Virus record (IMG/VR): IMGVR_UViG_3300042305_002088
Span: 1-64,000 of that record
DNA: 64,000 bases
From: a virus
Reading direction: 5' to 3' (one strand)
This document shows, piece after piece, positions 5,525 to 8,612 of this stretch. Each line of letters starts with the position of its first letter. Position 1 is the first letter of the stretch. The position numbers and the translations under genes were made by a program. Below the pieces are notes generated by a model. It had not been told where the DNA came from, did no database searches, and saw only the letters and a list, made by a program, of their open reading frames with translations.

Positions 5525-5596
5525 GCTCTTATAGTTCAAAGGTTAGAACGGTCTGTTTATAACGGACGAATCTTGGTTCAAGTCCAAGTAGGAGCA
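5525..5596 (+). tRNA. tRNA-Ile(UAU)
   Basis: Acceptor GCTCTTA/TAGGAGC with one G-T pair. Anticodon stem GTCTG/CGGAC encloses TTTATAA, anticodon UAU, reading the AUA codon that is frequent in this AT-rich genome. The 3' end overlaps the stop of the minus-strand endonuclease gene by 19 bases. Confidence 0.88.
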
Positions 5597-6288
5597 GTTC
5601 TTAGGTAGCGCACCAATTTCCGAAAATGAACATCTGCAGCAAACTCAGGAGTACCTAATTTATGTTCAATAATAACATAATTGATATAACCACACTCTTC
5701 AATTGCTTTATACCTTAAATTGTCCCGATGTTTAATTTTATTAAGTAAACTAACACCAGCTATAGGTTTCCAGTGCCATGCACCGTTCCAATGTATAGCT
5801 ATTTTATAATCTGGTAAAATTATATCTGCATCAAAGCCATTAAACATTTTTTTATTTGTAATAATTTTTAATCCGTGATTGATAAGTTTTTGAGATAATA
5901 TTTTTTCGCCTTTACTTCGACTATTTCTTCTTTGCCATAAACCACCAAGTCGTTTTTCAGTCTCAATATTCACTCTTCTCTTTAATTCATTTCTACACTC
6001 TATACCACACATTGATACTCTAGAATATTTTTCATGATAAAATTTTTTATTGCAAATTTTACAAGTTTTAACAAAGACGTCGTTCTCTTTTGGAAATTTT
6101 CGCCCAATAAGATCAGCTCTTTTTTTAAGTGTTTCACTCTTTTTTAATTTAGTTAGTAAGGTTTGCGGACCTCTTTTAAGATTATTAAATATAGCAGAAC
6201 AAGTTTGAGAGCAAAATTTCTTACCATATTTACTGGCAATAATTTTATTGCAATTTATACAATTCATATTATTATTTAATGAGGCCAT
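5578..6288 (-). CDS. Vsr-like (EDxHD-type) homing endonuclease with zinc fingers
   Basis: About 236 residues from the first plausible ATG (6286-6288). A TTG 12 bases upstream is possible. The N-terminal third has paired Cys motifs (CINC..CSQTC and CKIC..CGIEC) typical of the DNA-binding fingers of phage homing endonucleases. The C-terminal part has GEKILSQKL, then GFDADIILPDYKIAIHWNGAWHW and HRDNLRYKAIEECGY, matching the E..D..IHWNG.WHW core of Vsr-like nucleases. It lies antisense within the tRNA cluster, between tRNA-Ile and the intron-split tRNA, and is probably a mobile intruder. Confidence 0.8.
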   Translation of the reverse strand: MASLNNNMNCINCNKIIASKYGKKFCSQTCSAIFNNLKRGPQTLLTKLKKSETLKKRADLIGRKFPKENDVFVKTCKICNKKFYHEKYSRVSMCGIECRNELKRRVNIETEKRLGGLWQRRNSRSKGEKILSQKLINHGLKIITNKKMFNGFDADIILPDYKIAIHWNGAWHWKPIAGVSLLNKIKHRDNLRYKAIEECGYINYVIIEHKLGTPEFAADVHFRKLVRYLRTAPTWT

Positions 6289-6325
6289 ATAAAGGTTCAA
6301 GTACGTTCTTTGATAAAAATTTAAT

Positions 6326-6662
6326 GGGGTGGTAGCTCAATGGTTAGAGCAGTTAAAGCTGGCTGCTTTGTATCGTGAGATACATTGTTTACAATATTAA
6401 AGTTGCGGCTCATAATATTGTGACTTTATAGAGGGATCTATAATGAAAACTGGATGAATTCAGTGAAAGCCTAATAGGTCAACACTGAGCCAAGCTAAAG
6501 ATACATCTTTAGAAGGTGCAGAGACTACTGGAGAGGTTTAGTCCTCTTAATAACCAGAATTAGCGTCCGGCAACTCAAGTAGTTGAAGATATAGTCCACG
6601 GAGTTTGGTAACAAACACAAACGTAAATCGATTGGTTGTCGGTTCGAATCCGACCCGCCCCA
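6326..6662 (+). tRNA. tRNA gene split by a group I intron (isotype unresolved)
   Basis: The 5' part has acceptor GGGGTGG (6326-6332) and D-arm GCTC/GAGC. The 3' part has T-arm GTCGG-TTCGAAT-CCGAC, acceptor CCGCCCC (6655-6661), discriminator A6662 and an encoded CCA (6663-6665). Between them lies a group I intron core. The acceptor and T-arm are intact, so the locus looks functional. The anticodon cannot be assigned: with my best splice sites (after T6353 and after G6623) the product is about 67 bases and its anticodon arm is short by about 6. Confidence 0.75.
6354..6623 (+). other. Group I (IC3-like) self-splicing intron in a tRNA gene
   Basis: P1: exon bases 6345-6353 pair with 6362-6370 over 9 bp, with a T-G pair at the proposed 5' splice site. 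P4: TCAGTG (6460-6465) pairs with CACTGA (6483-6488). CTGAGCCAAGC (6485-6495), GGTGCAGAGACTA (6515-6527, R/P7) and AAGATATAGTCC (6586-6597, S/P7') resemble the cores of the Anabaena tRNA-Leu and Azoarcus tRNA-Ile introns. P9 is GTTTG-GTAA-CAAAC (6603-6616). The terminal G would be 6623. There is no ORF inside. The core is certain, the exact ends are not. Confidence 0.85.
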
Positions 6663-6671
6663 CCACTTTTC

Positions 6672-7442: not shown

Positions 7443-8612
7443 ATGTCTAAAATTCAATTACCAAAAAATATCGGTCAAGGAACGCCTGCTAAAATTCGTC
7501 AAGACGTTCAATACTTTGATACTTCCCATCACGGTTCGTTTTTTCCCTTTGGAATATATTTTACATCGACATACGGGGTAATGCCTTCTACAGTACATAT
7601 TAATAAAACCTATACAGAAGACTTAGTTTTCTTTTTGAGAGAGAAGGGTGAAATCTTTCAAGACTTAGTTTCTATATCTGCAGGGTCTCCTCGTTCTATG
7701 ACACTCAGTATGTACCAAGACGATTTTGAACTTGATGAACCGGAGTATAAAGGCACTTTTCTTTATAAAGACTGTGTTATAAATTTTACAAGAACAACGT
7801 CTCGGAAGCATAAAAAAGCTACTGATACTCCACCGCTTTTTAATATTTCCATTTACTACAAGCCAGGTACAAAACCACCTGTGAAAGACTTTGATAAGTT
7901 CTTGTACGAAGAAAAACTTAATAGTGTTATTCATACTATTTTTAGAGACGAGCATGGAGGAATTGTTTTTGAGCCTTTCGAAACTGTTGTCCCTGAAGGA
8001 TATACAGTAGAGAAATATTATACAAAAGACTTTCAACCTATGCACAAGCATATTGTTGAAACACTTAAAAAGAACGAATCTGGGTTGTATCTCTTTCATG
8101 GTGAACCAGGTACAGGTAAGACTACGTATATTAAACATTTGGCTAGTCTCATTAACCGGGACATGATTTACGTTCCTGTAGCATTTATTGACTCTCTAGT
8201 TGATCCATCTTTCTTGCCAGCATTACTTAAAAAGCGTCATTCAATTCTTGTTATTGAAGATGCCGAAAAAGCTCTATTAGCTCGAGAGCCAGGTGATTCA
8301 TCCTCCCTAGTTTCTGCTATTCTTAATATCACAGACGGTATTATGGGAAATGTGTTCTCGATTTCAGTCATTGCTACTTACAATTCACCGAGAGCTGGAA
8401 TTGATAAAGCTCTTCTTCGTAAGGGCAGATTAAAAGGTGAGCACAAATTTGATAAACTTCCTATCGAACAAGTTCAGCAAATTATTGATGATAATAAGAT
8501 TAATTTTACTGCTAAAGAACCAATGTCTCTAGCAGAAATATTCAACACTCAAGAACCTGATACTCTTACTACTAAGGAGCTGGTCGAGGAAAAAAGAATG
8601 GGATTCTTTTAA
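7443..8612 (+). CDS. AAA ATPase (BCS1-like)
   Basis: A 389-residue protein. An unfamiliar N-terminal domain (~1-200) is followed by an AAA module: Walker A GEPGTGKT at 220-227, Walker B ILVIEDAE at 268-275, a sensor-1-like VIATYN and an arginine segment LLRKGRLKGEHKF. The combination of GEPGTGKT, DxxD/E and RKGR resembles BCS1-type AAA proteins found in many large phages. It is not the clamp-loader gp44, because the spacing and N-terminal domain differ. The role is probably protein or nucleoprotein remodelling. Confidence 0.75.
   Translation: MSKIQLPKNIGQGTPAKIRQDVQYFDTSHHGSFFPFGIYFTSTYGVMPSTVHINKTYTEDLVFFLREKGEIFQDLVSISAGSPRSMTLSMYQDDFELDEPEYKGTFLYKDCVINFTRTTSRKHKKATDTPPLFNISIYYKPGTKPPVKDFDKFLYEEKLNSVIHTIFRDEHGGIVFEPFETVVPEGYTVEKYYTKDFQPMHKHIVETLKKNESGLYLFHGEPGTGKTTYIKHLASLINRDMIYVPVAFIDSLVDPSFLPALLKKRHSILVIEDAEKALLAREPGDSSSLVSAILNITDGIMGNVFSISVIATYNSPRAGIDKALLRKGRLKGEHKFDKLPIEQVQQIIDDNKINFTAKEPMSLAEIFNTQEPDTLTTKELVEEKRMGFF

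What the first reader, a model, noticed from the sequence alone, without database searches (positions are those of the whole stretch)
6326..6665. tRNA gene interrupted by an IC3-like group I intron in a phage
Seen: complete acceptor and T-arms with encoded CCA flank ~270 bases containing P4, R, S and P9 elements that closely resemble those of the Anabaena and Azoarcus tRNA introns. Group I introns in T4-like phages are better known from protein genes. The best P1 (9 bp with T-G at the splice site) puts the 5' junction right after the D-arm, which leaves the anticodon arm ~6 bases short, so either the junction differs or the tRNA is unusual.
Basis: seen in the sequence. Interest (0 to 1): 0.7.

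Follow-up and report, generated by a model that had tools for sequence, protein, structure and literature searches.

The report
Phage tRNA gene interrupted twice
A virus of bacteria carries an isoleucine-type transfer-RNA gene that is broken up twice, once by an ordinary self-splicing intron and once by a 52-base piece that has no catalytic part but carries its own splice guide, which suggests that one ribozyme removes both pieces.

Summary
The group I intron is real: Rfam RF00028, 89.9 bits, window 6402-6618. Intronless orthologues in syntenic phages show that the gene is tRNA-Ile2(CAU), and that the missing anticodon segment CGGCTCAT lies inside the supposed intron at 6406-6413. The gene is therefore interrupted twice. 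IVS1 (6354-6405, 52 nt) sits between tRNA positions 28 and 29. IVS2 (6414-6625, 212 nt, group I, IA-like rather than IC3) sits after CAU36. Unannotated single introns at the same site occur in Klebsiella jumbo phages and two metagenomic phages. Only the window and one relative have IVS1, and in both the normally invariant terminal G of the group I intron is A. IVS1 has no core, but carries a 14-bp guide (9-bp P1' with U.G at the junction, 5-bp P10') placed exactly on the orthologue-defined junction (11 of 200,000 shuffles), and ends in G. Best explanation, inferred and not shown: IVS2's core removes both pieces. [quoted passage not shown]

The parts
6326..6353 (+). exon 1 of tRNA-Ile2(CAU): positions 1-28 (acceptor 5' strand, D-arm, first two bases of the anticodon stem)
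   Evidence: aligned with intronless orthologues in L005, L007, L011 and L012; identical in L002
6354..6405 (+). IVS1: 52-nt core-less intervening sequence between positions 28 and 29; ends in G
   Evidence: absent from all intronless orthologues; present in L002 with 3 substitutions, one in the N of a GNRA loop and two compensatory
6357..6361 (+). P10' strand AGCTG, pairs with exon 2 CGGCT (5 bp)
6362..6370 (+). P1' internal guide GCTGCTTTG, pairs with exon 1 TAGAGCAGT (6345-6353), U28.G at the junction
6371..6382 (+). hairpin hp2 with GNRA loop (GUGA in the window, GCGA in L002); possible second P2
6384..6395 (+). hairpin hp3 ATTG-TTTA-CAAT (ACTG/CAGT in L002)
   Evidence: one compensatory double change
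6389..6399 (+). 5' strand of an alternative 11-bp helix that would mask U36 and the IVS2 guide (6413-6423)
   Evidence: MFE structure in both phages; weak significance, 0.9% of shuffles
6406..6413 (+). exon 2, CGGCTCAT: positions 29-36 with anticodon CAU
6414..6625 (+). IVS2: group I intron after CAU36, with P1 (CUCAU/GUGA), P10, P2-P9, P7.1/P7.1a; terminal nucleotide A (omega-A)
   Evidence: Rfam RF00028; homologous boundaries in L017, L171, Klebsiella phage Muenster and OU509535, all omega-G
6626..6665 (+). exon 3: positions 37-76 with encoded CCA
5578..6300 (-). adjacent free-standing putative homing endonuclease ORF (HNH/Vsr-like, weak hits); may or may not belong
   Evidence: PHROG 1271 E 3.4e-8, PHROG 3339 E 1.5e-6; Pfam Vsr below cutoff. 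Not in the corresponding place in L002

Best explanation
This is a phage tRNA-Ile2(CAU) gene in three exons (1-28, 29-36, 37-76). IVS2, after the anticodon, is a complete group I ribozyme. IVS1, in the anticodon stem, is a core-less mini-intron with its own splice guide (P1'/P10'), a GNRA hairpin and a terminal G. In the proposed mechanism the single core of IVS2 removes both. First, P1' docks in the core, guanosine cuts after U28, P10' brings C29 beside it, and the G ending IVS1 fills the guanosine site so that exon 1 joins exon 2. Removing IVS1 also frees the IVS2 guide (masked in the predicted fold), and IVS2 then splices with its unusual terminal A. The A may weaken the normal 3' site enough to limit joining of U28 to A37, which would lose the anticodon. 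Shown: the gene structure, the core, the guide pairings, conservation in two phages, and the terminal A. Inferred: that IVS1 is excised, that the IVS2 core does it, the order of events, and the role of the A.
For: Orthologue alignment fixes both IVS1 junctions without ambiguity. Of the forms tested, only removal of both pieces gives a tRNA. The IVS1 guide scores 14 bp, centred exactly on U28|C29: 120 of 200,000 dinucleotide shuffles reach 14 bp in total, 11 of 200,000 reach both P1>=9 and P10>=5, 0 of 63,499 genomic 52-mers do, and no other T-ending split of the tRNA exceeds 8 bp. P10' pairs 5 bp with exon 2 but 0 bp with exon 3. Between window and L002 the exons differ at 0/76 sites, IVS1 at 3/52 (all structure-preserving) and IVS2 at 16/211, against 20.8% in the neighbouring gene and 24.6% in a neighbouring spacer. 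IVS2 boundaries are fixed by single-intron phage homologues with omega-G. Excision of internal segments by group I ribozymes is established for engineered ribozymes (PMC4094466).
Against: No RNA data. Only two phages carry IVS1, and P1' does not vary between them, so P1'/P10' has no covariation support. P9.0 pairing for the IVS1 3' site is imperfect (GUUG rather than GUG). The masking helix is weakly significant. P1' uses D-stem bases, so it competes with tRNA folding. Omega-A normally impairs the second splicing step (own knowledge). No full-length group I intron at site 28|29, from which IVS1 could derive, was found.
Confidence: 0.5

Rival explanations
1. IVS2 is a normal group I intron, but IVS1 is a disabling insertion. 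The gene is a pseudogene, or yields only spliced but useless RNA, and the guide match is coincidence or a relic.
For: Omega-A suggests relaxed splicing; IVS1 has no core and no known relatives; the window also has a tRNA with anticodon UAU that could read AUA.
Against: Exons 0/76 different where neighbouring sequence differs by ~20-25%; all three IVS1 substitutions keep structure; the guide match is unlikely by chance; the same arrangement is kept in two divergent phages.
Confidence: 0.25
2. IVS1 is removed by proteins (an endonuclease plus RNA ligase/kinase), or is retained in a noncanonical tRNA, independent of IVS2.
For: Many phages encode RNA-repair enzymes (own knowledge); IVS1 folds into compact hairpins.
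Against: Does not explain the precise 14-bp group I-style guide, the U before and the G at the end of IVS1. No tRNA fold was found with IVS1 retained. A repair-enzyme search of the genome was not done.
Confidence: 0.12
3. One reading: one ~270-nt intron from U28 to a G near 6623, leaving a short anticodon arm.
For: A strong P1 exists at U28; a G precedes TAAATCG.
Against: Product is not a tRNA; only 2 bp P10 with that 3' exon against 5 bp with exon 2; orthologues and single-intron homologues place the intron after CAU36.
Confidence: 0.03
4. Free IVS2 ribozyme removes IVS1 in trans after splicing itself out first, or two precursor molecules help each other.
For: Engineered group I ribozymes excise segments in trans (PMC4094466); hairpin hp3, which excludes the masking helix, is supported by one compensatory change.
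Against: The predicted fold masks the IVS2 guide while IVS1 is present.
Confidence: 0.1

Closest known systems
Group I introns in bacterial tRNA anticodon loops (Azoarcus tRNA-Ile(CAU), cyanobacterial tRNA-Leu; IC3)
   Same: tRNA-Ile(CAU) gene, CAU-ending 5' exon (Azoarcus site from own knowledge), short P1 with U.G
   Different: IA-like core with P7.1/P7.1a; in a phage; terminal A; a second, core-less interruption in the same tRNA
Phage group IA2 introns (T4 td, Twort orf142)
   Same: Core type and P7.1 region; Twort orf142 also has a short exon between two introns (PMC10136302)
   Different: Those lie in protein genes and each intron has its own core. A 2014 review states that all phage introns observed to date were in protein-coding genes (PMC3984707)
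Trans-excision-splicing ribozymes and spliceozymes (engineered)
   Same: Removal of a core-less segment through P1/P10-type recognition by a group I core (PMC4094466)
   Different: Natural, in cis, and the guide sits in the removed segment rather than on the ribozyme
Coxiella burnetii 23S rRNA introns
   Same: Short exon between two group I introns (PMC10136302); one lacks the terminal G (own knowledge; the papers are not held)
   Different: Both Coxiella introns have their own cores; rRNA rather than tRNA
Unannotated tRNA-Ile2(CAU) introns of Klebsiella jumbo phages (Muenster, OU509535)
   Same: Same tRNA, same site after CAU36, same GTGACTTT guide region
   Different: Single intron, terminal G, no IVS1

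Membership tests
Group I intron (IVS2) | Match to the Rfam RF00028 model above gathering score | tested here: met
   89.9 bits against 50, full model 1-253
Group I intron (IVS2) | Core helices P3, P4, P6a, P7, P9 supported by covariation | tested here: met
   15 double-change pairs over P2-P9 in up to four phage introns, no non-standard cells; P7 and P8 themselves showed no double change. Helices were aligned by hand
Group I intron (IVS2) | P1 with U.G at the 5' splice site | tested here: met
   CUCAU/GUGA, U36.G6420
Group I intron (IVS2) | Terminal guanosine (omega-G) | tested here: not met
   A6625 in window and L002; G in L017, L171, Muenster, OU509535 and in 32 of 32 bacterial tRNA-Asn introns. 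Known exceptions exist (own knowledge), so this lowers expected activity rather than removing it from the family
Group I intron (IVS2) | Self-splicing | not testable with these tools
   needs in vitro transcription
Subgroup IC3 | No P7.1/P7.2 extension between P7 and P3 (own knowledge) | tested here: not met
   P7.1 and P7.1a present and covarying
Group I intron (IVS1) | Own catalytic core | tested here: not met
   52 nt; no Rfam match of its own
Group I intron (IVS1) | Guide (P1/P10) spanning the exon junction, U before, G at the end | tested here: met
   9+5 bp, U28.G6362, ends in G6405
Trans-excision splicing substrate | P9.0 pairing next to the 3' site | tested here: inconclusive
   GUUG|C; only an imperfect match to the AC used by IVS2 P9.0 (by inspection)
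tRNA-Ile2(CAU) | Cloverleaf with CAU anticodon, synteny with intronless genes | tested here: met
   68/76 and 71/76 identical to L005 and L007. ARAGORN calls it tRNA-Met(cat)
tRNA-Ile2(CAU) | Lysidine at C34 (isoleucine rather than methionine identity) | not testable with these tools
   56/76 match to E. coli tRNA-Ile2 recalled from memory, 8-nt D-loop
Archaeal bulge-helix-bulge intron | BHB motif at both junctions | not tested
   no formal motif search

The most novel reading that the evidence does not exclude
A natural group I counterpart of dependent introns: a 52-nt intron that has only a guide and splice sites and is removed by the ribozyme core of a neighbouring intron in the same transcript. 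One core would serve two introns in a fixed order, with loss of the terminal G as an adaptation against skipping the 8-nt anticodon exon.
Probability: 0.42. Interest if true: 0.88.

Novelty: new variant of a known kind. Interest (0 to 1): 0.7.

Why it matters
A 2014 review states that group I introns in phages lay only in protein-coding genes (PMC3984707). This work finds at least four separate single-intron tRNA-Ile2 loci at one site, some in cultured Klebsiella phages whose annotation missed them. If IVS1 is removed by the neighbour's core, it is a natural form of a reaction known to me only from engineered ribozymes. It would also give a group I case of the idea that introns can lose their catalytic core and depend on another RNA, which bears on how simple tRNA introns may have arisen (hypothesis discussed in PMC6125680). 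The 340-nt locus makes the question directly testable in a tube.

Tried and rejected
Searches for other IVS1 copies or a full-length intron at site 28|29 found nothing: gapped patterns in viral contigs, blastn in annotated phages, local blastn over fetched loci. One search hits other than L002 were unrelated sequence or tandem tRNAs. A wider orthologue scan gave 80 loci; a partly cut inspection showed no further interrupted tRNA-Ile2. The pattern scan of bacterial genomes returned mainly Patescibacteria tRNA-Asn(GUU) introns at 35|36, useful only as an omega-G control. The phage intron hits at S-SRM01, Flavobacterium immuto and LR756501 showed no tRNA gene nearby. T4 tRNA-Ile was compared and is no closer than E. 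coli Ile2. No plasmid match. The remaining ~39 kb of the contig holds no further tRNA. Assembly artefact rejected: two contigs whose insertion and intron differ by 6-8% share the arrangement. Conserved exons alone are not proof, since two short spacers in the cluster are also unchanged.

Full report
Observation. The window at 6326-6665 begins with GGGGTGGTAGCTCAATGGTTAGAGCAGT and ends with AATCGATTGGTTGTCGGTTCGAATCCGACCCGCCCCACCA, the two ends of a tRNA with encoded CCA. ARAGORN finds seven other tRNAs in the window, but not this one. Rfam places a group I intron at 6402-6618 with 89.9 bits, the only RF00028 match in the 103,278-base virus record.

Which tRNA. The next tRNAs downstream (Lys, Asn, Arg, Glu) and the AAA-type gene at 7443-8612 were used to find relatives. 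In L005, L007 and L011 the place of this gene is held by an uninterrupted gene with anticodon CAU; a pattern search found further copies. Example, L007: GGGGTGGTAGCTCAATGGTTAGAGCAGTCGGCTCATAATCGATAGGTTGACGG... The 8-nt D-loop and overall match favour tRNA-Ile2 (C34 to be modified to lysidine) over elongator Met, though ARAGORN labels the gene Met(cat). Identity as an isoleucine tRNA is inferred.

Two interruptions. Aligned to these genes, the window has AGT (to position 28), then 52 nt, then CGGCTCAT (29-36), then 212 nt, then AATCGAT (37 on). In silico removal of both pieces gives a 76-nt cloverleaf. One other contig (L002, also seen as L009 and L036) has the same arrangement.

IVS2. Two metagenomic phages (L017; L018 with its neighbouring sequence L171), Klebsiella jumbo phage Muenster (MT708547) and phage OU509535 carry a tRNA-Ile2-like gene with one group I intron after CAU36, with RF00028 scores of 62-104 bits. 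KP13-7, RCIP0023 and phiKp_21 match the same stretch but were not read. Three of the four spliced forms fold for ARAGORN; the Muenster form, with an enlarged D-loop, does not. Muenster and OU509535 share the GTGACTTT guide region with the window. The intron in L018 encodes an HNH-type endonuclease ORF (read by eye), so this site has probably been mobile. Core helices covary. P7.1/P7.1a between P7 and P3 argue for an IA-like rather than an IC3 intron. In all four single-intron loci, and in 32 of 32 bacterial tRNA-Asn introns, the intron ends in G. In the window and L002 it ends in A at a position fixed by homology (...CACAAACGTG|AATCG in L018...CACAAACGTA|AATCG here).

IVS1. It is 52 nt with no core. 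It starts after U28 and ends in G. Its segment AGCTG|GCTGCTTTG pairs 9 bp with the end of exon 1 (U28.G at the junction) and 5 bp with the start of exon 2, which is the geometry of a group I internal guide. Chance: 120 of 200,000 shuffles reach 14 bp in total, 11 reach both lengths, 0 of 63,499 genomic 52-mers do; the same insert placed after any other T of the tRNA reaches at most 8 bp. P10' pairs 5 bp with exon 2 but none with exon 3. A GNRA hairpin and a second hairpin follow. All three differences from L002 preserve these structures: GUGA to GCGA, and one compensatory pair.

Constraint. Window against L002: exons 0/76, IVS1 3/52, IVS2 16/211, AAA gene 20.8%, downstream spacer 24.6%. Lys and Asn tRNAs are also 0%. 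The interrupted gene is kept as well as its neighbours, which speaks against a pseudogene. Caveat: two short spacers inside the cluster are also unchanged, so local exchange may contribute.

Mechanism, inferred. IVS1 presents a second P1 domain to the IVS2 core. In the predicted fold of both phages an 11-bp helix between IVS1 and 6413-6423 hides U36 and the IVS2 guide, which would force IVS1 to leave first; its statistical support is weak (0.9% of shuffles). The terminal A may lower competition from the normal 3' site. Known tandem group I introns around short exons show exon skipping (Twort 23 nt, Coxiella 34 nt; PMC10136302), which here would delete the anticodon. Engineered group I ribozymes do excise segments recognised by P1, P9.0 and P10 (PMC4094466), so the chemistry is possible. 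P9.0 for IVS1 is imperfect, and nothing has been shown in RNA.

Verdict. The intron is confirmed and the gene model corrected. Phage tRNA introns are new relative to the 2014 review (PMC3984707); literature searches here found no later report, but the library lacks most subscription papers. The dependent mini-intron reading is the best-supported explanation at about even odds.

Noticed in passing
L178 about 883-1207 (Klebsiella phage Muenster MT708547); L179 (OU509535): Unannotated tRNA-Ile2(CAU) genes split by a single group I intron in Klebsiella jumbo phages; KP13-7, RCIP0023 and phiKp_21 match the same stretch.
   Followed up: partly
L171 (G001:C1:68700-71800, reverse strand): Phage tRNA-Ile2 intron carries an HNH-type endonuclease ORF that overlaps the 5' part of the ribozyme core.
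   Followed up: partly
L113-L167 (Patescibacteria contigs): Thirty-two group I introns in what look like tRNA-Asn(GUU) genes, placed inside the anticodon (35|36), some with endonuclease-like coding sequence upstream.
   Followed up: partly
L002 530-620, L003 4607-4697, L007 7409-7499, L011 4429-4523: A tRNA with anticodon UAU but a long class-II variable arm in relatives of this phage; the window has an ordinary 72-nt tRNA-Ile(UAU) instead. Its amino acid is unclear.
   Followed up: no
window 5578-6300 (-): Free-standing putative homing endonuclease between tRNA-Ile(UAU) and the interrupted tRNA; its 3' end overlaps the tRNA-Ile gene. Absent from that place in L002.
   Followed up: partly
L002 1-390: A different endonuclease-like ORF (PD-(D/E)XK-looking by eye) upstream of tRNA-Gln in the relative.
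   Followed up: no
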